DNA from: a virus
DNA length: 22,467 nucleotides
Direction: 5' to 3' (one strand)
IMG/VR virus record: IMGVR_UViG_3300017776_000218
Location: 1-22,467 of that record
Shown: piece by piece, positions 4,390 to 17,446 of the stretch
Layout of the letters: every line of letters starts with the position of its first letter
Numbering within the stretch: the stretch's first letter is position 1
Position numbers and translations under genes: made by a program
The notes under the pieces: generated by a model
Database searches by the model: none
Seen by the model: only the letters and a program-made list of their open reading frames with translations
What the model was told of the DNA's origin: nothing

Positions 4390-4683
4390 ATGCCTCGTAA
4401 AAAAGAAAATCCAATACGCAAAACCACCGGCAAAGGTGGTAACTACCGAAAGACTAAGGCCGGTGCGGGTATGACCAAAAAGGGTGTTGCCGCTTATCGT
4501 AAGAAAAACCCCGGCTCTAAGCTCAAAACTGCCGTTACTGGCAAGGTTAAAAAAGGTAGTGCCGCAGCTAAACGCCGTAAATCTTATTGCGCACGTTCAG
4601 CAGGACAAATGAAACAATTTCCGAAAGCTGCAAAAGATCCGAATAGTCGATTGCGACAAGCTAGAAAAAGGTGGAAGTGCTAA
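4390..4683 (+). CDS. Lysine-rich small protein, DUF6321-like
   Basis: This 97-residue, strongly basic protein has blocks MTKKGVAAYRKKNPGSKLKT (28-47) and KRRKSYCARSAGQMK, ending in KRWKC. From memory these match a phage and giant-virus family of unknown function annotated DUF6321. Lys and Arg make up about a third of the protein, with few hydrophobic residues and two Cys, so nucleic-acid binding is plausible. It is the first of a run of basic small genes (4390-5301). Its stop TAA touches the next ATG directly (TAAATG). Role unknown; packaging or packing of DNA in the head is inference. Confidence 0.75.
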   Translation: MPRKKENPIRKTTGKGGNYRKTKAGAGMTKKGVAAYRKKNPGSKLKTAVTGKVKKGSAAAKRRKSYCARSAGQMKQFPKAAKDPNSRLRQARKRWKC

Positions 4684-4830
4684 ATGGCTATGAGCCGTTC
4701 ACAGATGGGGCAACAAGTTACTAAATCGCCCATGAAAAGGAAGAAGAATGCCAAAAGACGCGTGCTACAAAAAGGTAAAAGCAAGGTACAAGGTGTTTCC
4801 AAGCGCATACGCAAGCGGAGCAATCGCTAA
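4684..4830 (+). CDS. 48-residue basic ORF overlapping the next gene
   Basis: An ATG immediately after the preceding stop opens a 48-residue frame: it starts MAMSRSQMGQQVTKSPMKRK and ends KRIRKRSNR. Its last 83 bases overlap the next gene in another frame. The first 21 codons fill a stretch that would otherwise be non-coding and contain the ribosome site AGGAAG for the next start at 4748. It may be a real small protein, a coupled leader, or the 5' part of a frameshifted product joined to the next frame at the A-rich GCCAAAAGA. Only the opening part looks protein-like; the rest may reflect lysine codons read in a second frame. Confidence 0.45.
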   Translation: MAMSRSQMGQQVTKSPMKRKKNAKRRVLQKGKSKVQGVSKRIRKRSNR

Positions 4831-5023
4831 GTGTAGAAAAAAAGGCGCTAAAAACTGGGGAAACAGCAAAAAAAAGCCTGTTAAGAAGGCTATGGGTGGC
4901 GTTATTGAGCCATCTAATGAGTTTCGCAAGCGTCCAGTACGTCGAATGATTAGCGGTGGAGCTGTAGCAAACGGTTGCGGTAAAGTTTTGTCAAATAGAA
5001 GAAAAGTTACAAAGTATTCATAA
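4748..5023 (+). CDS. Lysine-rich small protein with conserved Cys
   Basis: This 91-residue basic protein has the motif KDACYKKVKARYKVFPSAYA near its N-terminus, then SGAIAKCRKKGAKNWG, which I recall as a recurring block in marine and cyanobacterial phages with no known function. The C-terminal half carries GGAVANGCGKVLSNRRKVTK, another recurring phage tail motif. Cys at residues 6 and 29 could bind metal or form a disulfide. AGGAAG four to five bases upstream supports the ATG at 4748. The last base of its stop TAA (5021-5023) is the first base of the next ATG. The function is unknown; it is probably a nucleic-acid-associated head or core component. Confidence 0.75.
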   Translation: MPKDACYKKVKARYKVFPSAYASGAIAKCRKKGAKNWGNSKKKPVKKAMGGVIEPSNEFRKRPVRRMISGGAVANGCGKVLSNRRKVTKYS

Positions 5024-5301
5024 TGGCTGTAAGAAAAACAAAAAAAGGTGCTGCTTTAAAGCGTTGGTTTAAAGAAGACTGGAAAGATGTTAAAACAGGT
5101 AAGCCTTGTGGACGTAAAAAGGGCGAAAAACGCTCAACTCCTTATTGTCGCCCCACTAAGCGCGTAAGCTCTAAGACACCAAAAACAAGATCAGAGATGA
5201 CAGCGAGCGAAAAGCGTAGTAGAGTAGCCCAAAAGAAGCGTATTGGTCAACCTGCGGGCAAGCCTCGTAGAGTAAAGGCTTTAAAAAGGAAAAAGAAATG
5301 A
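5023..5301 (+). CDS. Lysine-rich small protein, DUF5872-like
   Basis: This 92-residue basic protein contains KKGAALKRWFKEDWKDVKTG, then KPCGRKKGEKRSTPYCRPTK and RVSSKTPKTRSEM. From memory this pattern is the family annotated DUF5872 in cyanophages and giant viruses, function unknown. Two Cys (CGRKKGE and YCRP) flank a basic loop. The C-terminus (KRIGQPAGKPRRVKALKRKK) is almost purely basic. It overlaps the preceding gene by one base (TAATG) and the next by four (ATGA), so it is coupled to the adaptor gene that follows. Nucleic-acid binding is inferred from charge alone. Confidence 0.78.
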   Translation: MAVRKTKKGAALKRWFKEDWKDVKTGKPCGRKKGEKRSTPYCRPTKRVSSKTPKTRSEMTASEKRSRVAQKKRIGQPAGKPRRVKALKRKKK

Positions 5302-8231: not shown

Positions 8232-11200
8232 ATGGCTAGTACATATACGTTAAATAATGGGATCGAACTCATAGGAACTGGCGAACAGTCAGGTACATGG
8301 GGCGATACAACAAATACAAATTTAGAACTAATTGATACCGCGCTAGACGGTCAAATTAGCTTAACATTATCATCAGCAGGCTCTTCTGGATCGCCAAACG
8401 CGCTTCCAGTTTCAGATGGAGCATCATCTAATGGCAGAAATCGTTTAATTTCTTATGTAGATAGTGGTGATCTTGGGGCAACAGCTTATGTTCAATTAAC
8501 ACCAAATGATGCTGAAAAAATTATTTACATTCGAAACGCCTTATCTGGCTCACGCAGTATTATTGTCTTTCAAGGTACATATAACGCATCTAATGACTAT
8601 GAAATTCCAGCGGGTACAACAGCAGTTGTTTACTTTAATGGTGGCGGCACAGGTGCTGTAGCCGCAAACGTATTTAACAATGCTTACTTTGATGGTTTAA
8701 GATTAGGTAGCGTTTCTGTTACAGCAATTCTTGATGAAGATAACATGGCATCTAATAGTGCTACAGCTCTTTCTACACAACAGTCTATTAAAGCGTATGT
8801 GGATAGTCAGGTTGGCACGGTTGATACGCTTGCAGAGATACTTGCTAACGGAAACACGACTGGCGGTACTGATCTTGCGGTATCTACAGGCGACGACATT
8901 ACATTTGCGGACAACTCAAAAGCCATATTCGGTGCTGGGTCTGACCTACAGATTTATCATGATGGGGCGAATAACTACATTGAGGGTCAAACTGGTAGTA
9001 TAATTATTCAAAACACCCTTGATGATTACAATGTAATTATAAAATCAGATAACGGTTCTGGTGGAATGGCTGACTATTTTAGAGCAAACGGAAACACTGG
9101 TGCAGCTTTGATGTACAACTACGGCTCTGAAAAACTAGCCACAACATCAACAGGCATTGACGTAACAGGCACAGCCGTAACAGACGGCCTTACAGTTGCT
9201 GGTAATGTTTCAGTAGACGGCGGCACAATCAAGCTAGACGGGAATTATCCTGTTGGTACAGCCAATGTGGCGTTGGGTGATACTGCATTAGATAGTGTGC
9301 AATCTGGTGGTAACTATAATGTAGCTATAGGTTCAAGTGCAGGTACTGCGATTACAAATGGTGAAGCTAATGTAGCTCTTGGTTGGGAAGCATTAAAAAC
9401 AGAAGATACAGGTAACTTTTCTACTGCTATTGGTTATCGTGCGCTACTTACACAAAATAATAATGCGAGCAATTATAACACCGCTGTTGGTGCATTAGCA
9501 GGGTCGCAAATAGGCACAGGCGTAAGAAACACTATTATCGGTGGAATTGCAGGAGATGCTTTAACTAATGCTAATTACAACGTAGCTATTGGGTTTGACG
9601 CTTTGGGGACAGATACGCTTGGTAGTGGTTCTGTTGCTATTGGATACCAAGCACTTGAAAGACAAAACTTCACTTCTGCGACAACAAACTACAATGTAGC
9701 TGTTGGTTACAATACGGGTGAAAATATCACCACAGGCGTTCAAAACACCCTCATAGGTGCATTAGCAGGAGATTCTTTAACCGATGCTGATTATAATGTG
9801 GCTGTTGGTTATAACGCTTTAACATCAGATACGTTAGGTAGTTATTCTACTGCTATAGGCAGAAACGCTTTATATAGTCAAAACTTTACCTCTGCTACGC
9901 AATCTCATAATACTGCAATTGGATATGCCGCAGGTGAGTCAGTAACGACAGGCGTTAATATTACACTTATGGGTAGCGGTGCAGGTGATAGTGTTACTAC
10001 AGGTAATTCAAGTGCCGCCTTTGGTTACGGGGCTTTGTCTTCTGTGACAACGAATGATAATAATACTGCTATCGGCACGTTATCAATGCAAAACTCAACA
10101 GGTGCTAATAATACAGCAGTTGGTTACACTTCTCTTCGTGCCGCAGGGTCAGGAAGTAATAACGTGGCTGTTGGCTACGAAGCATTAGTCTCAAATACCA
10201 CAGGTTCTAATAACGTAGCTATAGGTAAAGACGCTTTAGATTCAAACACTACAGCTTCAAATAATGTGGCTATAGGTGTTGATGCTTTACAAACAAATAC
10301 TGTAGGTGCTGAAAGTGTAGCGATTGGTACATTTGCTTTAAATGCTCAAAATCCTGCTTCAGCTACAAGTATGTATAACGTAGCTGTAGGACACAACGCA
10401 GGAGCCGCAGTCACCACAGGCACTCGAAATACCCTTATCGGTGGCATTGCAGGTGATGCTTTGACAACTGGTGGTGATAATACTGTACTAGGATACAACG
10501 CACTAACTTCTGATACTTTAGGAAGTAAAACTGTTGCAATAGGACGATCAGTTTTAAGCAGTCAAAACTTTACATCTGCTACAGACACTTACAACACAGC
10601 AGTAGGTTATGGTGCAGGTGGTCAAGTCACAACAGGCGTAAACAACACCCTCATTGGTGGACTAGCTGGTGATGCCCTTTCTGATGCTGATTATAATGTG
10701 GCGATTGGTTCTGGTGCTTTAGGCAGTGACACTTTAGGAAGTAGAAGCGTAGCTATTGGCTATCAAGCCTTAGTTGCACAAAACTTTACTTCAGCCACTG
10801 AAACCTATAATACCGCTGTTGGTATGTTTGCAGGTGGCTCAGTAACCACAGGTCGATTTAATAACCTCATCGGTGGATTAGCAGGAGATGCTCTTACAGA
10901 TGGTAGTGCTAACGTGGCTATCGGGTACGGCGCTTTAAGCTCAGACACTAGGGGGCAAAGCAGTGTTGCTATTGGTCATGCCGCCTTAGAATCACAGAAC
11001 TTTACATCTAGTGCTGATTCATTCAACACAGCAGTTGGTAAGAGTGCAGGTAATCAAGTAACCACAGGCACAAGAGATACCCTCATTGGTGGTTTAGCTG
11101 GTGATGCTCTTACTACTGGAAGTTATAACGTAGCGGTTGGTTATACTTCATTGGGCGCAACGACAGAGGGTAACTCCAATGTAGCAGTAGGAGATGCCTC

Positions 11201-13214
11201 TTTAACTCAGAACATCACAGGTTCGGAAAACACAGCAGTGGGGCAAGGCGCTTTATCTAGTGCGACTGCATCTAAAAATACCGCTGTTGGTTCGCAGGCA
11301 GGAATAAATGTAACCTCAGGCACAGAAAACACACTCATAGGTGCATTAGCTGGTGATGCACTAACAGATGCAGACTATAATATAGTAGTAGGTACAGCCT
11401 CTTTAAGTACAGATACATTAGGTAGTCGGTCTATTGCGATTGGTTATAAGGCACTTGAAAAGCAAAACTTTACATCAGCAACAGATAGTTACAACACGGC
11501 AGTAGGACACGCCGCAGGTAATCAAGTAACCACAAGCATAAGAAATACCCTCATTGGCGGTCTTGCTGGTGATGCTCTTACTACAGGTCAAGAGAACACT
11601 GCACTTGGTTATTTTGCACTTAGTAGTGATACTTTAGGTAAAAAGTCTGTAGCGATTGGCGCAGGTGCATTAGGTCTACAAAACTTTACATCAACTACAG
11701 ATGCTTACAACACAGCAGTTGGTTTTGATGCAGGTCTATCAGTAACCACAGGCAGAGAGAACACCCTCATTGGTGGTGAGGCTGGTGACTCATTAACGGA
11801 CGCTGATTATAACGTGGCTATTGGTGTTTCAGCTTTAGGTGCTGATACAAAAGGTAGTAGAGCAATAGCTATTGGACATGGTGCTTTAGGCGCACAAAAC
11901 TTTACGTCTGCTACTAATAATTATAACGTAGCTATAGGTTTTCAGGCAGGTAATGATGTAACCACAGGTATAAACAACACCATTATCGGCGGACTTGCAG
12001 GTGATGCACTCACTGACGCTGACCACAATGTTGCAATTGGTCAGAGTGCTTTAACGACTGATACTAAAGGAAGTAAAAATACAGCAGTCGGTCATTCGGC
12101 TCTTGAAGCTCAAAACTTTACTACATCTACAAGTAGTTACAACACAGCCATTGGGTCTGACTCTGCTAAAGCAATCACAACAGGCATACGGAATACAATA
12201 ATTGGTAGTTCGGCAGGTGATTCTCTTACTGATGCTGATAAAAACGTAGTTGTAGGGTATGCCGCACTATCTGGCGATACTTTAGGTTCTAAATCTACAG
12301 CTATAGGTGATGGTGCTTTAGCTACACAAAATTTCACATCCGCTACAGATAGTTTCAACGTAGCTATTGGCGCAAGTGCTGGTTATAATTCAACCACAGG
12401 TAGATTTAATACTTTAATTGGTGCAAATGCGGGGGATGGACTTACATCATCAAACAGTAATACAGCCGTTGGCAAAGATGCTCTTGGTTCAGATACTCTA
12501 GGCGAGAACTCAGTTGCAATAGGTGAAAAAGCACTATTTACACAAAACTTTACTTCAAGTGTAGATAGCTTCAATACCGCCGTAGGTACTGGTGCAGGGT
12601 ACGCAGTAACCACAGGTGACAGAAATACCTTAATTGGTATGCAAGCAGGTGATGCAATCACGACAGGATCAAACAACACCCTTGTTGGGAATGGGACTGA
12701 GACAAGTGCTGTCGATGGTACTAGCCAAATTGTTTTGGGTAAAGCTACAATAGGTGTTGGAAATAGTACATTTACTTTTGGTAAAGATAATGGCTCTGAT
12801 CGTGTTTATAATCAGTTTACCTCTAATGCCACTTTTACTAGGGTGTCGGATGAACGATATAAAAAAGAGATTCAGACCAACACTGATTGTGGTTTAGATT
12901 TTATTAACGATTTACGCACTGTAACATTTAAGTTTAGAGCAAAATCTGAAATACCTAATACCTTACCTGACTATGACGCAGAAAAAACAACCGCAGAGCA
13001 TACGAATAAGTTGTACGGTTTAATTGCCCAAGAAGTTAAAGCGGCTTTAGATACACATAACATTACAGATTTTGGTGGTCACTCTGAAGAAGAAAATAGT
13101 GGAATACAAGGTGTAGCACAGTCTATGTTTGTCTACCCACTTATTAAAGCAGTACAAGAATTATCAGCAAAGAACGATGCACTAGAAGCACGTATCGCAA
13201 CACTAGAAGGATAA
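8232..13214 (+). CDS. Giant repetitive tail fibre with S74 chaperone domain
   Basis: This 1660-residue protein has four parts. Residues 1 to about 170 are a virion-attachment-like N-terminus starting MASTYTLNNGIELIGTGEQS. Residues 170-350 are linker and beta modules, including DLQIYHDGANNYIEG. Residues 380-1481 (1102 residues) are 15 tandem units built of subunits with the core N(T/V)A(V/I)G, resembling YadA-head or Hep_Hag repeats that form trimeric beta-rolls. The end holds a peptidase S74 intramolecular chaperone with SDERYKKEI: Ser1539 and Lys1544 match the Ser/+5-Lys dyad of endosialidase tailspikes, so self-cleavage before Ser1539 would release about 122 residues. It ends in a trimeric coiled coil (LSAKNDALEARIATLE). 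It is the host-binding fibre, receptor unknown. Confidence 0.9.
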   Translation: MASTYTLNNGIELIGTGEQSGTWGDTTNTNLELIDTALDGQISLTLSSAGSSGSPNALPVSDGASSNGRNRLISYVDSGDLGATAYVQLTPNDAEKIIYIRNALSGSRSIIVFQGTYNASNDYEIPAGTTAVVYFNGGGTGAVAANVFNNAYFDGLRLGSVSVTAILDEDNMASNSATALSTQQSIKAYVDSQVGTVDTLAEILANGNTTGGTDLAVSTGDDITFADNSKAIFGAGSDLQIYHDGANNYIEGQTGSIIIQNTLDDYNVIIKSDNGSGGMADYFRANGNTGAALMYNYGSEKLATTSTGIDVTGTAVTDGLTVAGNVSVDGGTIKLDGNYPVGTANVALGDTALDSVQSGGNYNVAIGSSAGTAITNGEANVALGWEALKTEDTGNFSTAIGYRALLTQNNNASNYNTAVGALAGSQIGTGVRNTIIGGIAGDALTNANYNVAIGFDALGTDTLGSGSVAIGYQALERQNFTSATTNYNVAVGYNTGENITTGVQNTLIGALAGDSLTDADYNVAVGYNALTSDTLGSYSTAIGRNALYSQNFTSATQSHNTAIGYAAGESVTTGVNITLMGSGAGDSVTTGNSSAAFGYGALSSVTTNDNNTAIGTLSMQNSTGANNTAVGYTSLRAAGSGSNNVAVGYEALVSNTTGSNNVAIGKDALDSNTTASNNVAIGVDALQTNTVGAESVAIGTFALNAQNPASATSMYNVAVGHNAGAAVTTGTRNTLIGGIAGDALTTGGDNTVLGYNALTSDTLGSKTVAIGRSVLSSQNFTSATDTYNTAVGYGAGGQVTTGVNNTLIGGLAGDALSDADYNVAIGSGALGSDTLGSRSVAIGYQALVAQNFTSATETYNTAVGMFAGGSVTTGRFNNLIGGLAGDALTDGSANVAIGYGALSSDTRGQSSVAIGHAALESQNFTSSADSFNTAVGKSAGNQVTTGTRDTLIGGLAGDALTTGSYNVAVGYTSLGATTEGNSNVAVGDASLTQNITGSENTAVGQGALSSATASKNTAVGSQAGINVTSGTENTLIGALAGDALTDADYNIVVGTASLSTDTLGSRSIAIGYKALEKQNFTSATDSYNTAVGHAAGNQVTTSIRNTLIGGLAGDALTTGQENTALGYFALSSDTLGKKSVAIGAGALGLQNFTSTTDAYNTAVGFDAGLSVTTGRENTLIGGEAGDSLTDADYNVAIGVSALGADTKGSRAIAIGHGALGAQNFTSATNNYNVAIGFQAGNDVTTGINNTIIGGLAGDALTDADHNVAIGQSALTTDTKGSKNTAVGHSALEAQNFTTSTSSYNTAIGSDSAKAITTGIRNTIIGSSAGDSLTDADKNVVVGYAALSGDTLGSKSTAIGDGALATQNFTSATDSFNVAIGASAGYNSTTGRFNTLIGANAGDGLTSSNSNTAVGKDALGSDTLGENSVAIGEKALFTQNFTSSVDSFNTAVGTGAGYAVTTGDRNTLIGMQAGDAITTGSNNTLVGNGTETSAVDGTSQIVLGKATIGVGNSTFTFGKDNGSDRVYNQFTSNATFTRVSDERYKKEIQTNTDCGLDFINDLRTVTFKFRAKSEIPNTLPDYDAEKTTAEHTNKLYGLIAQEVKAALDTHNITDFGGHSEEENSGIQGVAQSMFVYPLIKAVQELSAKNDALEARIATLEG
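9369..12674 (+). repeat. Fifteen tandem units of about 216 bp in the fibre gene
   Basis: Twelve units are 72 residues, the first is 70, and the fourth and ninth are 84; these sum exactly to 1102 residues. The common unit has four subunits beginning NVAIG, SVAIG, NTAVG and NTLIG, spaced 17, 21, 17 and 17, with QNFTSAT in the second. The 84-residue units have five subunits and lack QNFTSAT. Two more subunits precede the array. Confidence 0.92.
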
Positions 13215-13735: not shown

Positions 13736-13971
13736 TGCAAATGGACGCGCTTTGGAACTTCGCTTTAACCGCAGGATTTGGTTTTTTGATATGGTGGATT
13801 AAATCCCACCACGAAGAACTAAAGCGTGTCACCATTCTGCTTAACAGAACTAGAGAGGAGTTGGCTAAAGAATACGTCACTAAAGCTGACTCATCTCAAG
13901 TATTAGGTCAAATAATGAGTAAATTTGATCGTATTGAAGAAAAGCTAGACAGGCTGGTAGAAAGAAAATGA
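13735..13971 (+). CDS. Small membrane protein with coiled coil
   Basis: This 78-residue protein has one membrane segment at about residues 6-22 (LWNFALTAGFGFLIWWI) followed by a charged coiled coil to the end (VTKADSSQVLGQIMSKFDRI, EEKLDRLVERK). It overlaps both neighbours (TAATG upstream, ATGA downstream). The layout of a single N-terminal membrane helix and a soluble coiled coil is that of an inner-membrane spanin (Rz-like), and it opens the membrane and lysis half of the window, but it is short for a spanin and the topology is not known. An accessory holin or anti-holin is the alternative. Confidence 0.6.
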   Translation: MQMDALWNFALTAGFGFLIWWIKSHHEELKRVTILLNRTREELAKEYVTKADSSQVLGQIMSKFDRIEEKLDRLVERK

Positions 13972-14534
13972 TACGCTCACTTGTAATATTGTTCTTCTTT
14001 ATTGCAGGTCTTACTATTGGTAATACTGTTTTTGCTGATGATGACGATACGATTAAGTCTGAAAGCACAGTAAGGTCGGATGGTACAATGGACACTACTA
14101 TCAACAGTCCACCGCCCTCTGCAATTTCCCCACAGATCAGCGCAAGTAACTCTGACTTATGTACTGTCGGGGTTGCTGGTGCAGTACAAACACAAATACT
14201 TGGTATCTCTGCTGGTCGTACTGTTAGAGATATGAACTGTGAAAAGCTCAAAAATGCTAAAACCATGTACGATATGGGCATGAAGGTAGCTGCCGTATCT
14301 GTAATGTGTCAGGACGAAAGAGTGTTTGAAGCCATGCTCAACGCGGGGACGCCCTGTCCCAAGGATGGGTTGGTGGGCGACAAAGCTAGACTGGCATGGG
14401 AAATGGAAGCCGTAAAAGAAGAAATACAAAGAGATCAGAACAATCCTATGAGAAAGATGTTCAATGAAAACGTTGAAACAAAAACGGGTCTTAGTGTTAT
14501 TATTAGCACTTTGGCCTTCTTACTCTTCTTGTGA
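13968..14534 (+). CDS. Secreted or membrane-anchored phage protein
   Basis: This 188-residue protein has a clear Sec signal peptide (MIRSLVILFFFIAGLTIGNT, then VFA|DDDD, cut near residue 23) and a second hydrophobic stretch at the extreme C-terminus (GLSVIISTLAFLLFL). Four Cys (65, 91, 114, 130) in the mature part could form two disulfides in the periplasm. The central block CTVGVAGAVQTQILGISAGR and the MGMKVAAVSVMCQDERVFEA segment are recalled as conserved in marine phages, function unknown. It overlaps the previous gene by ATGA and the next by 71 bases. It is the first of five consecutive exported proteins. Confidence 0.7.
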   Translation: MIRSLVILFFFIAGLTIGNTVFADDDDTIKSESTVRSDGTMDTTINSPPPSAISPQISASNSDLCTVGVAGAVQTQILGISAGRTVRDMNCEKLKNAKTMYDMGMKVAAVSVMCQDERVFEAMLNAGTPCPKDGLVGDKARLAWEMEAVKEEIQRDQNNPMRKMFNENVETKTGLSVIISTLAFLLFL

Positions 14535-15336
14535 CCCTTATAGTTATGGGACAACAGGGAATGCCGCGTCTACAGCACTAAGCTGGAGCATGAGTTCTGT
14601 TTTGCCTGATATTCCGGGTATTGATATTAACGGCTTACTATACAAATACACAACAGTAAAAGACCCTGACGCTGATATGAAAGTGCATATTGGCAATAAG
14701 AATGTTGACGCAGATGGCTATATCTTTCGAAAAACAGACGATTGGTCAGGAGTTCCCGGAAACACTATTGTTAGATCGTTTCCCCTTTCGAACATTCCAG
14801 CTCCGCAATGGGGTGCGGGTTCGATTGATGTTGAAGGGGAAGGTTCGGTCAAAGATGCTATGGTTATATATAGTTATAGATTAGACGAATGTTATGATGA
14901 GCAATCTAACCCTGCATGTCCGGGATATGTCAAACCTATACCTGTAATACCTGTAGTTGAACTGTATGACGTACTAGAAGATGATGACGCTATGGCTGCT
15001 ATAGACGCGGATACAGACTTTCAGTATGATGAAGATGGCAATCTGATACTTTCTGAAGAAGAGGAAGAGGAAGAAAATAGAATTGAGATGGGTCTAACAG
15101 CGTCTGCCAATGCACTGACCCTGTTTAAGACACAAGGACAAGATGATATTATCATGGCTATTAACCAACAAACAAACTTAGCTATGTACTATAACGCATC
15201 TATTAATGGCGGTGTGTATGCTGACGCCCCCGGTCTTGCTGATTCAGAGATAGCTGACAACAAGAAAGCCTTGCGTAACAATCTAGCACAACAGATTCTG
15301 CATGAGAAAATGGTCGATATGCAGTACAACAAATGA
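14464..15336 (+). CDS. Exported protein, possible lipoprotein
   Basis: This 290-residue protein begins MKTLKQKRVLVLLLALWPSY and then SSC, a signal peptide ending at Cys23. YSSC is an imperfect lipobox (Tyr at -3), so lipid attachment is possible but uncertain; Asp follows the Cys. The mature part is acidic and beta-rich, with a Cys pair at 143 and 152 in DECYDEQSNPACPGY, a run of seven Glu near residues 198-204, and a helical C-terminus. The signal peptide supports the start at 14464, although this lies inside the preceding gene. I recall unnamed homologues in marine phages. It is too large for a typical outer-membrane spanin, and the function is unknown. Confidence 0.7.
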   Translation: MKTLKQKRVLVLLLALWPSYSSCDPYSYGTTGNAASTALSWSMSSVLPDIPGIDINGLLYKYTTVKDPDADMKVHIGNKNVDADGYIFRKTDDWSGVPGNTIVRSFPLSNIPAPQWGAGSIDVEGEGSVKDAMVIYSYRLDECYDEQSNPACPGYVKPIPVIPVVELYDVLEDDDAMAAIDADTDFQYDEDGNLILSEEEEEEENRIEMGLTASANALTLFKTQGQDDIIMAINQQTNLAMYYNASINGGVYADAPGLADSEIADNKKALRNNLAQQILHEKMVDMQYNK

Positions 15337-15344
15337 GGTTTAAT

Positions 15345-15833
15345 ATGAAGTATTTAATAGCAACACTTTCTCTCGTTGCACTGCCAGCTTTCGCAACTGT
15401 AAATATTACAGGGAGTGTAGAAGCCAAATGTGTGATACAAACAGACAAAGCTGGTGTGTATGGAAACCCTATTGCCAGTAAGTTAAGCACAACACCTGCG
15501 GATGGTGGTATATTACCTGTAATTAGAATTGATGTATCTATTGCAGATGCCTACACAGCTAACATAACGCACCCAACATCGTTTAGTTCTTCACCTACCT
15601 TAACAGATACATTGGTATGGACAGGTAGCACTACTGTAACAAAGATGTCTGCGTCAGGTATGTCTGCATATAATGGTGCTAAAGCAGTGGTAGGCAGCAC
15701 ATCTAAATTTAATCTTACCCTTGCAGGGTCGGCATGGTTCTCTACTGCATCCAGCGCAGTTTACGGTTCAGCAAAACCGTTTCCCGGTGGCACTTACACC
15801 GCAGTTGTACAGGCTACCTGTATTGCTAAGTAG
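15345..15833 (+). CDS. Exported fimbrial-subunit-like protein (hypothesis)
   Basis: I choose ATG 15345 over 15333 because GAGG (15335-15338) is six bases upstream and the signal peptide then reads MKYLIATLSLVALPAFA. The 145-residue mature protein is almost all beta, with two Cys. Its start, VNITGSVEAKCVIQTD, and its last strand, GGTYTAVVQATC, recall fimbrial subunits: an N-terminal strand before a conserved Gly-x-Val and a closing strand with alternating hydrophobic residues. The middle (TLTDTLVWTGSTTV) resembles, by eye, class 5 fimbrins such as CfaB. The likeness is from memory and not aligned. The next gene looks like a small beta-sandwich chaperone. No usher is seen, so a virion or cell-surface role remains possible. 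Confidence 0.7.
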   Translation: MKYLIATLSLVALPAFATVNITGSVEAKCVIQTDKAGVYGNPIASKLSTTPADGGILPVIRIDVSIADAYTANITHPTSFSSSPTLTDTLVWTGSTTVTKMSASGMSAYNGAKAVVGSTSKFNLTLAGSAWFSTASSAVYGSAKPFPGGTYTAVVQATCIAK

Positions 15834-16209
15834 GATAATCACGATAGGTACGTTAGTTACTTTTGGTGCGTCTGCGCACGAGATGACCCCAGCCTATCCA
15901 GAAGTAAAGATGTCCCACGTTAAAAACGTAGTTAAGGTAGAGATGTCTCTTTTTAATTCAAGAGAAGAGATACAGTATTATCAGGTTGATTTGTTTGATT
16001 TAAACTGGATGCCTATACCTTTTTCTACGCCATATAAAATTATGAAAGTTGACTATAAAGAACATAAATCTTTTGATGTCTACATAAGAAAGAGAGATTT
16101 ACCCGAAGCAGTCTTTCTATGCACAACCTCAAAAGTAAGAAAGACTAATGTATCTAGGACACTTGTTTCTTCTACGATATGCTCAAGGCTAGATGGAGAA
16201 CCTGCATGA
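15823..16209 (+). CDS. Exported single-domain beta protein, chaperone-like
   Basis: An open frame runs through here, but its first ATG (15721) lies deep in the preceding gene. A TTG at 15823 gives 128 residues with a textbook signal peptide, MLSRIITIGTLVTFGASA|HE, so I use it; AGG about ten bases upstream is a modest ribosome site. The mature protein has strands VVKVEMSLFNSREEIQYYQV and DLFDLNWMPIPFSTPYKIMK, then a KSFDVYIRKRDLP edge strand and two Cys. That order recalls the first immunoglobulin-like domain of periplasmic fimbrial chaperones, including the Pro-rich middle and the late leucine-proline turn. It follows the fimbrin-like gene with overlap. The chaperone function is inference. 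Confidence 0.65.
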   Translation: MLSRIITIGTLVTFGASAHEMTPAYPEVKMSHVKNVVKVEMSLFNSREEIQYYQVDLFDLNWMPIPFSTPYKIMKVDYKEHKSFDVYIRKRDLPEAVFLCTTSKVRKTNVSRTLVSSTICSRLDGEPA

Positions 16210-16604
16210 GATTAGTAGTAGCTCTTTGTTTGTTATCTAGTTCTGTTGTAGCCGACAACAGCTCACTTTCTCTTGCTTTGCCCAACCCGCCCATGAACTA
16301 TCAGTCGGATTCGTTTTCTACAGGTAATACGCGTTGCAGTAACGCTGTGGGTGGAGGTGTAAACCTAGAGTATGGCGTAACGGGTGTTCTTTCTGGATTG
16401 AATACAATGAATAAAGGTAAGGATATAGGTGTGTATGCTCGTATTGTTATACCGCTTGATAAACCAAAGGCTCGTATTAACTGTGATGATCTTTACCAGA
16501 TAGAGTTAACACAGCGTCGTTTAGAGATACAAAAGTTACGAGACGAGCTAGAAGCACTGAAGAACTTACAAAATGCTGGCGGCGAGATGGAGTTTGAAAA
16601 CTAA
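16206..16604 (+). CDS. Exported protein with C-terminal coiled coil
   Basis: ATG 16206 is preferred over 16179 because it has GGAG seven bases upstream, overlaps the previous stop as ATGA, and starts a signal peptide MRLVVALCLLSSSVVA|DNSS. The 132-residue product has a central block FSTGNTRCSNAVGGGVNLEY and then KDIGVYARIVIPL, two Cys (in TRCSN and INCDD) that may pair, and a C-terminal helix IELTQRRLEIQKLRDELEAL. A periplasmic coiled coil could give oligomers. I recall the family in many marine phages close to lysis genes; function unknown. It could be a cell-envelope disrupting protein, an outer spanin-like partner, or a structural protein. Confidence 0.68.
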   Translation: MRLVVALCLLSSSVVADNSSLSLALPNPPMNYQSDSFSTGNTRCSNAVGGGVNLEYGVTGVLSGLNTMNKGKDIGVYARIVIPLDKPKARINCDDLYQIELTQRRLEIQKLRDELEALKNLQNAGGEMEFEN

Positions 16605-17113
16605 TGGATACTACCAAGATAGCAGATAATATAGATGGGCTTGCAGATCGTGAGTTTAAGACAGGTGGCATGAAGTTGTCGTTTGGCTCTATCGTAGCTA
16701 TATTTGCGTTCTTATCTACAGTTGTAGGTGGGCTATATGGTGGGTTTGTTATGTACCAAAAGATAGAAGAGGTCGCGGGGCTAGACCTAGGTGCTTACCA
16801 ACAAGCGATGGATGTTATGGATGCAAAAGTCACGGGTATTGCGGAAAAGGTAGAAGAATCCGTAGAATATAGTCGTGACATTAAGAACGGATTACGTTCG
16901 GACATATTGAGCATTGAGAAGCAGACGGATCGTGTGGAGGACATGGTACGTGAATCTGAAGACAAAGTGCGTAAGATGATAGACAACGCAGAAGTTCGCT
17001 TTGAAAATCAACGAGAACGTGTTAGAGTTTCGCAAAGTGGCGATATGAAAGAACTTGAAGATAAGTTAATGGATAAACTACAAAGGGCGTTAGACAACCC
17101 CCTTGCTGATTAG
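16604..17113 (+). CDS. Membrane-anchored coiled-coil protein
   Basis: This 169-residue protein has a soluble N-terminus (1-24), one membrane segment at about 25-50 (MKLSFGSIVAIFAFLSTVVG then GLYGGFVMY), and a long charged coiled coil to the end (EKVEESVEYSRDIKNGLRSD onward). Its start overlaps the preceding stop (TAATG). An inner-membrane spanin has this layout when the coiled coil faces the periplasm, and the gene is close to the holin and endolysin. Against that, it has an unusually long cytoplasmic lead, and no clear outer spanin lipoprotein is encoded nearby. I call it lysis-region membrane protein of unknown function. Confidence 0.65.
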   Translation: MDTTKIADNIDGLADREFKTGGMKLSFGSIVAIFAFLSTVVGGLYGGFVMYQKIEEVAGLDLGAYQQAMDVMDAKVTGIAEKVEESVEYSRDIKNGLRSDILSIEKQTDRVEDMVRESEDKVRKMIDNAEVRFENQRERVRVSQSGDMKELEDKLMDKLQRALDNPLAD

Positions 17114-17122
17114 GAGACTAAT

Positions 17123-17446
17123 ATGACTGAGTTTGAAAAAGCTGATGTAGACGGTAACGGTTCGATAGATCAAGCCGAATGGGATCGCATGGCGTTCGAA
17201 GATAAACGTTTAAAAATGCTAGATGACGATGCGCAAAGAGACGCTCAACGCAAGATGGCATGGTTCGCTTTGTTTGGTATGCTACTATACCCACTGTCTA
17301 TAATTATTTGTAACTTGGCTAATCTTGATGAAGCCATGAACTCACTAGCTTCTATTGCTGGTGTGTATTTTGTTTCTGTAGCTGCTATCGTTGCCGCCTT
17401 CTATGGTAAGGAAGCCTACACAAAAGGAAAGGCGAATAACGAATGA
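17123..17446 (+). CDS. EF-hand membrane protein in the lysis module
   Basis: This 107-residue protein carries a canonical EF-hand loop at residues 8-19 (DVDGNGSIDQAE): Asp8, Asp10, Asn12, Ser14, Asp16 and Glu19 are the expected calcium ligands. After a charged helix come two membrane segments at about 45-64 (MAWFALFGMLLYPLSIIICN) and 75-94. AGGAG sits upstream, and the gene overlaps the holin gene by ATGA. A calcium-binding domain joined to a holin-sized membrane protein suggests a possible holin partner or an ion-sensing regulator, but a single EF-hand without a partner is unusual. I recall such EF-hand membrane genes in marine phages; function unproven. Confidence 0.72.
   Translation: MTEFEKADVDGNGSIDQAEWDRMAFEDKRLKMLDDDAQRDAQRKMAWFALFGMLLYPLSIIICNLANLDEAMNSLASIAGVYFVSVAAIVAAFYGKEAYTKGKANNE

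What the first reader, a model, noticed from the sequence alone, without database searches (positions are those of the whole stretch)
15345..16209. Fimbrin-like and chaperone-like pair in a phage lysis region
The 15345 product has a signal peptide, an all-beta mature chain starting VNITGSVEAKCV and a closing strand GGTYTAVVQATC, patterns like class 5 fimbrial subunits. The next gene, in a different frame and starting at TTG, encodes an exported single beta-domain resembling the first domain of a fimbrial chaperone. No usher is present. If true, a phage would carry a stripped-down subunit/chaperone system, for example to coat the infected cell, block superinfection or add to the virion. The similarity is judged by eye and memory.
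Basis: partly seen in the sequence, partly recalled or inferred. Interest (0 to 1): 0.75.

Follow-up and report, generated by a model that had tools for sequence, protein, structure and literature searches.

The report
Phage-borne mini chaperone and pilin pair
Several unrelated phages of Gram-negative bacteria carry the same small set of three exported genes, of which two are predicted to fold like a bacterial hair (fimbria) subunit and like half of its folding helper, with no known export gate; viruses seem to have adopted a stripped-down version of a bacterial surface-fibre system whose purpose is untested.

Summary
Gene A (15345-15833) encodes an exported all-beta protein. Gene B (start TTG 15823, not 15721) encodes an exported single beta-domain. 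AlphaFold2 models searched blind against 350,542 PDB chains gave, for B, pilus chaperones almost throughout (PapD, FaeE, FimC, Caf1M, DraB), and for A, eight fimbrial subunits at ranks 1-8, CfaB (class 5) first, though with weak E-values. A also has a type-1-pilin-like donor-strand motif at its mature N-terminus (TVNITGSVEAKC, compare FimA TVHFKGEVVNAAC). The pair is not alone: a third exported protein C (16206-16604) always follows. A-B-C recurs in marine podovirus-like contigs, T5-like, 60-kb and 80-kb Vibrio phages; in a T4-like Vibrio phage, an Erwinia vequintavirus and jumbo phages C is kept with A/B-like neighbours. All are unannotated. No usher, no second chaperone domain and no Pfam match were found. 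The genes are under purifying selection and accessory. Best reading: a miniature chaperone-subunit module working by donor-strand complementation in the infected cell's envelope, with C as likely membrane partner. Fold identity is well supported; donor-strand mechanism, role of C and purpose (surface coat or superinfection block versus lysis aid) are inference.

The parts
15345..15833 (+). Gene A: exported pilin-like subunit (signal peptide 1-17; N-terminal donor-strand-like extension TVNITGSVEAK; conserved Cys near mature N-terminus and in last strand)
   Evidence: ORF; AF2 pLDDT 91.2 with first residues outside the fold; Foldseek ranks 1-8 all chaperone-usher pilins, CfaB first; donor-strand motif test
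15823..16209 (+). Gene B: exported single-domain PapD-like chaperone (start TTG 15823; signal 1-18; mature 110 aa; invariant Cys in strands F and G)
   Evidence: Start from relatives; AF2 pLDDT 87.5; Foldseek hits mostly pilus chaperones; conservation highest in strands A1, F1, G1
16206..16604 (+). Gene C: third core member; exported, conserved Cys, amphipathic strands (GVYARIVIPL), second Cys, C-terminal coiled-coil-like helix; proposed outer-membrane partner (inference)
   Evidence: Family linked across all phage groups by jackhmmer and profile search; always next to A and B
13968..14534 (+). Upstream exported protein (signal, invariant core SDLCTVGVAGAVQTQILGISAGRTVRDMNC, C-terminal hydrophobic stretch); travels with the cassette in marine phages, also in pelagiphages without it
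   Evidence: accessory to the module, not in the Vibrio or large phages examined
14464..15336 (+). Upstream exported 290-aa protein with an acidic stretch; travels with the cassette in marine phages
16604..17113 (+). Inner-membrane-anchored coiled-coil protein (one hydrophobic segment, long coil) directly after C; travels with the cassette in marine phages
   Evidence: topology read from the sequence

Best explanation
A-B-C is a miniature, usher-less relative of the chaperone-usher system carried by phages. All three proteins go through Sec into the periplasm of the infected cell. B, a stand-alone version of the first domain of a PapD-like chaperone with a predicted F-G disulfide, caps A, a pilin-like incomplete Ig fold, by lending a strand. 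A is then passed on so that the free N-terminal strand of one A (TVNITGSVEAK) completes the next A, giving a short polymer or coat held at or moved through the outer membrane with the help of C. Encoded next to tail-fibre and lysis genes and so probably made late, it most likely changes the infected cell's envelope or surface (masking receptors from superinfecting or sister phages, or a coat on the cell). Shown: genes, conservation, three-gene linkage, predicted folds, absence of a recognisable usher. Inferred: strand donation, polymer, role of C, timing, purpose.
For: Fold of B: PDB ranks 1-13 all pilus chaperones (PapD E 4e-4). Fold of A: ranks 1-8 all chaperone-usher pilins. The two proteins were matched separately yet hit the two partners of one pathway. 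N-terminal motif of A: 219/245 A ORFs and 14/17 E. coli K-12 pilins but 15/4010 other ORFs, one of the 15 being the A-like neighbour in jumbo phage D479 found only by synteny. Profile comparison: the best A-pilin match is that motif (1/100 shuffles reach it); Vibrio-type B aligns over 90 columns with chaperone domain 1 (2/100). B is most conserved in strands A1, F1 and G1; A1 and G1 bind subunits in FGL chaperones (PMC3706281). A-B-C are linked in 225 loci and in unrelated isolated phages. Purifying selection.
Against: Foldseek E-values for A are weak (best 4.8e-3) and only one of five AF2 models of A was confident (91.2; others 76-58). No Pfam match for A or B even at E 10, and no relatives matched fimbrial or PapD families at E 1. 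Marine B alone does not beat shuffles against chaperone domain 1 (26/100). B lacks the second chaperone domain and has no clear N-terminal anchoring Arg. Cysteines of A lie in its first and last strands, not strands A and B as in DraE-type pilins. No complex could be modelled. C was not folded. No expression or localisation data.
Confidence: 0.6

Rival explanations
1. The cassette is part of the lysis machinery: A, B and C, with neighbouring membrane-anchored coiled-coil or small lipoprotein genes, disrupt or time the outer-membrane step of lysis, using Ig-like folds without building a fibre.
For: It sits beside holin and endolysin in the window and in T5-like Vibrio phages; no Rz spanin family over cut-off in 18 records; C has a coiled-coil-like end and is followed by an inner-membrane coiled-coil protein (marine) or a small lipoprotein (Vibrio).
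Against: In large myophages the cassette lies away from recognised lysis genes (near tk, rIIAB or tRNA genes); the chaperone and pilin folds have no known lysis role; in some marine contigs the block lies next to head or tail genes.
Confidence: 0.2
2. A and B are ordinary exported Ig-like domains that only look like pilin and chaperone; A acts as a monomeric receptor-masking or inhibitory protein, without strand donation.
For: Ig-like folds are common; no sequence-family match; A's E-values are weak; B also has a few non-chaperone Ig-like hits.
Against: Both searches put the specific partner families on top; the pilin N-terminal motif is rare elsewhere; two separate families stay paired in unrelated phages.
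Confidence: 0.15
3. A and B are decoys that jam the host's own chaperone-usher pili (chain terminator and chaperone mimic) during infection.
For: FimI-type terminators are pilin-like; the first domain of chaperones carries usher contacts (established knowledge, not tested here).
Against: A conserved cognate pair plus C is not needed for a decoy; presence of chaperone-usher pili in the hosts was not shown.
Confidence: 0.05

Closest known systems
Chaperone-usher pathway, FGL chaperones (Caf1M, DraB) with homopolymer or capsule-like fibres
   Same: PapD-like chaperone domain, Cys pair predicted between strands F1 and G1, one subunit type
   Different: One domain instead of two, no usher, phage-borne, extra protein C; no Pfam PapD_N match
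Class 5 fimbriae (CfaA/CfaB)
   Same: A's model matches CfaB best
   Different: Class 5 chaperones lack the F1-G1 disulfide (PMC4133393); A has two conserved cysteines; no usher or adhesin gene
Type 1 pilus subunits (FimA, FimF, FimG)
   Same: N-terminal donor-strand motif hydrophobic-x-hydrophobic-x-G-x-hydrophobic followed by Cys
   Different: Cys spacing 3 instead of 4; second Cys in the last strand; no penultimate Tyr
DraD invasin
   Same: Pilin-like subunit reported to reach the surface independently of the usher (PMC3112383)
   Different: DraD has a full chaperone-usher operon beside it
Phage receptor-masking proteins such as T5 Llp (from memory)
   Same: Exported phage proteins made in the infected cell; possible purpose similar
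   Different: Llp is one lipoprotein with no chaperone; no sequence or fold link tested

Membership tests
PapD-like periplasmic pilus chaperones | Ig-like N-terminal domain of PapD topology | tested here: met
   AF2 pLDDT 87.5; Foldseek ranks 1-13 all pilus chaperones
PapD-like periplasmic pilus chaperones | Two Ig-like domains | tested here: not met
   Mature B is about 110 aa in marine phages and similarly short in the other groups
PapD-like periplasmic pilus chaperones | Sequence match to PF00345 (PapD_N) | tested here: not met
PapD-like periplasmic pilus chaperones | Basic anchors: N-terminal Arg and Lys in strand G1 | tested here: inconclusive
   R/K two residues after the G-strand Cys in the aligned members; no clear N-terminal Arg
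FGL chaperones | Disulfide between strands F1 and G1 | tested here: inconclusive
   Invariant C82 (strand F) and C102 (strand G) in model and alignment; bond itself not shown
FGL chaperones | Long N-terminal extension and five alternating hydrophobics in the donor strand | tested here: not met
   Short N-terminus; G strand VSSTICSRL has weak alternation
Chaperone-usher pilin subunits | Pilin-like Ig fold with free N-terminal extension | tested here: met
   Residues 1-12 outside the fold; Foldseek ranks 1-8 pilins, weak E-values; motif
Chaperone-usher pilin subunits | Missing G strand, open groove filled by chaperone or next subunit | not testable with these tools
Chaperone-usher system | Outer-membrane usher | tested here: not met
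   PF00577 absent in 18 phage records; E. coli control positive
Rz-type spanin (lysis rival) | Match to PF03245 | tested here: not met
   No match over cut-off in 18 records

The most novel reading that the evidence does not exclude
A-B-C is a complete three-gene surface-fibre system in phages: A polymerises by donor-strand exchange, B is a one-domain chaperone, and many copies of the small protein C together form an outer-membrane gate that replaces the 800-residue usher.
Probability: 0.2. Interest if true: 0.92.

Novelty: new variant of a known kind. Interest (0 to 1): 0.74.

Why it matters
Chaperone-usher fibres are known as bacterial surface organelles; the papers that could be searched here turned up none on phages encoding the subunit-chaperone pair. 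If true, phages remodel the envelope of infected cells with a borrowed fibre chemistry, and the cassette gives a minimal system in which to ask whether donor-strand assembly needs two chaperone domains and an usher. It also gives testable annotation to PHROG families 25895, 25455 and 37374, now of unknown function, in about 180-200 isolated phages.

Tried and rejected
hhalign between marine B and large-phage B, or marine A and Klebsiella-phage A, gave only matches around the signal peptide, so A/B identity there rests on synteny with C, the motif in D479, and a weak PHROG 25455 match of D479's B. C versus the 13968 protein, alike by eye, is not supported. Virion role: the main text of the Kp24 structure paper (PMC9700779) does not mention the gene products. 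Literature searches for phage-encoded chaperone-usher parts found none. Viral fold library: one good match, A0A482IFC0, unnamed. Bacterial genomes: one hit, a phage-like contig in a Rhodobacteraceae bin. Promoters and terminators not above chance.

Full report
What is in the window. The window is a 22,467-base virus record. Its major capsid protein is 73% identical to that of Pelagibacter phage HTVC023P and 72% to phage DSL-LC04. Between a 1660-aa fibre-like gene and the holin (PF11351, 1e-23) and endolysin (GH108, 2e-31) lies a row of exported or membrane proteins. A (15345-15833) and B (TTG 15823-16209) overlap in different frames, and B's stop overlaps C's start (ATGA at 16206), as in a translationally coupled operon. 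Signal peptides are read from the sequence (cleavage after AFA, ASA, VVA). Medians of dN/dS are 0.12, 0.13 and 0.09 for A, B and C.

A third gene belongs to it. C (16206-16604) follows in every locus long enough to tell: 225 loci hold A, B and C together. C is also the best conserved across distance. A jackhmmer search links the marine C to C of T5-like Vibrio phages, 60-kb and 80-kb Vibrio phages, an Erwinia vequintavirus (SNUABM_56), Klebsiella jumbo phages (Eowyn, Miami) and jumbo Vibrio phage D479. In the Vibrio phages the order is A-B-C, then small genes including a small lipoprotein, then (T5-like) holin and M15 endolysin. In the large myophages, including FBKp24, 2.275.O and the T4-like 1.081.O, C lies between a short exported B-like gene and an exported A-like gene. 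About 180-200 isolated-phage records carry matches to the Vibrio-type proteins. Those examined are annotated 'hypothetical'. HTVC023P and DSL-LC04 lack C, and Vibrio phage douglas 12A4 keeps only a C remnant, so the cassette is accessory. In marine contigs it moves as a block with two upstream exported genes and two downstream membrane genes, next to lysis, head or tail genes in different contigs.

Fold of B. A 33-row alignment gave pLDDT 87.5 and strands in the order of an Ig-like chaperone domain. Foldseek against the PDB put PapD, FaeE, FimC, SfaE, Caf1M and DraB in ranks 1-13, best E 4e-4, TM-score by query length mostly 0.5-0.69. Conservation is highest in strands F1, G1 and A1; G1 and A1 are named as the subunit-binding strands of FGL chaperones (PMC3706281). 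Two invariant cysteines fall in strands F and G; FGL chaperones have a conserved F1-G1 disulfide, whereas FGS and class 5 chaperones lack it (PMC4133393). Vibrio-type B ends CAKVRLYWP, close to the strand-G ending IKLFYRP seen in K-12 chaperones; its profile aligns over 90 columns with K-12 chaperone first domains, 2 of 100 shuffles doing as well, while marine B does not pass (26 of 100). Vibrio and marine B are linked by a weak but end-to-end profile match with both cysteines in register (E 1e-3).

Fold of A. A 30-row alignment gave pLDDT 91.2 for the best model, but 76-58 for the other four. The first ten residues are the low-confidence part and carry no strand, as expected of a free N-terminal extension. 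Foldseek ranks 1-8 are all chaperone-usher pilins: CfaB (five chains), FimF and the PapG pilin domain (two chains), with E 4.8e-3 to 2e-2. The mature N-terminus reads TVNITGSVEAKC; FimA has TVHFKGEVVNAAC and K-12 YcbV has TVNISGSFRRNTC. A regular expression for this motif matches 219 of 245 A ORFs, 14 of 17 K-12 pilins and 15 of 4010 other ORFs; one of those 15 is the A-like neighbour in jumbo phage D479, which the profile had not found. It does not match the A-like neighbours of Kp24, 1.081.O or (at the N-terminus) 2.275.O, so the large-phage A assignments are tentative.

What is missing. No usher (PF00577) and no PapD_N Pfam match in 18 records, the E. coli control being positive. B has no second domain.

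How it most likely works. Because A and B were matched separately to the two partners of one pathway, and stay paired, I infer that B holds A in the periplasm by donor-strand complementation and that A's N-terminus completes a neighbouring A. C has conserved amphipathic strands (for example GVYARIVIPL, and GLKLTYKF in D479) and a helical tail; an outer-membrane role is a guess from sequence. The coat or exclusion role is favoured over lysis because the cassette is away from recognised lysis genes in the large phages, but this is the weakest step.

Novelty. I call it a new variant of a known kind: chaperone-subunit chemistry without usher or second chaperone domain, in phages. It should not be filed as a chaperone-usher system, since two defining features (usher, two-domain chaperone) were tested and not met.

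Noticed in passing
13968-14534: Exported protein with a nearly invariant core of about 80 residues (SDLCTVGVAGAVQTQILGISAGRTVRDMNCEKLKNAKTMYDMGMKVAAVSVMCQ) shared with several pelagiphages; PHROG 20531, function unknown.
   Followed up: partly
16604-17113: Protein with one N-terminal hydrophobic segment and a long coiled coil, conserved after C in marine phages; looks like an inner-membrane spanin candidate.
   Followed up: partly
17123-17446: Small protein joining an EF-hand-like stretch (DVDGNGSIDQAEW) to two hydrophobic segments just before the holin.
   Followed up: no
4390-5301: Three consecutive small, very lysine/arginine-rich proteins (97, 91, 92 aa) in the structural gene region.
   Followed up: no
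8232-13214: 1660-aa fibre-like protein with many repeats of the type YNVAIG...ALTTDTLGSxSVAIG and a C-terminal DERYKKEI region like an intramolecular chaperone (by eye).
   Followed up: no
L162:3890-4295: Vibrio phage douglas 12A4 keeps only the last part of C plus the small lipoprotein gene after its large PHROG 10818 gene; A and B are gone.
   Followed up: yes
L157:5056-5259: Small lipoprotein (PHROG 16916) directly after C in Vibrio phages; no equivalent seen in the marine phages.
   Followed up: no
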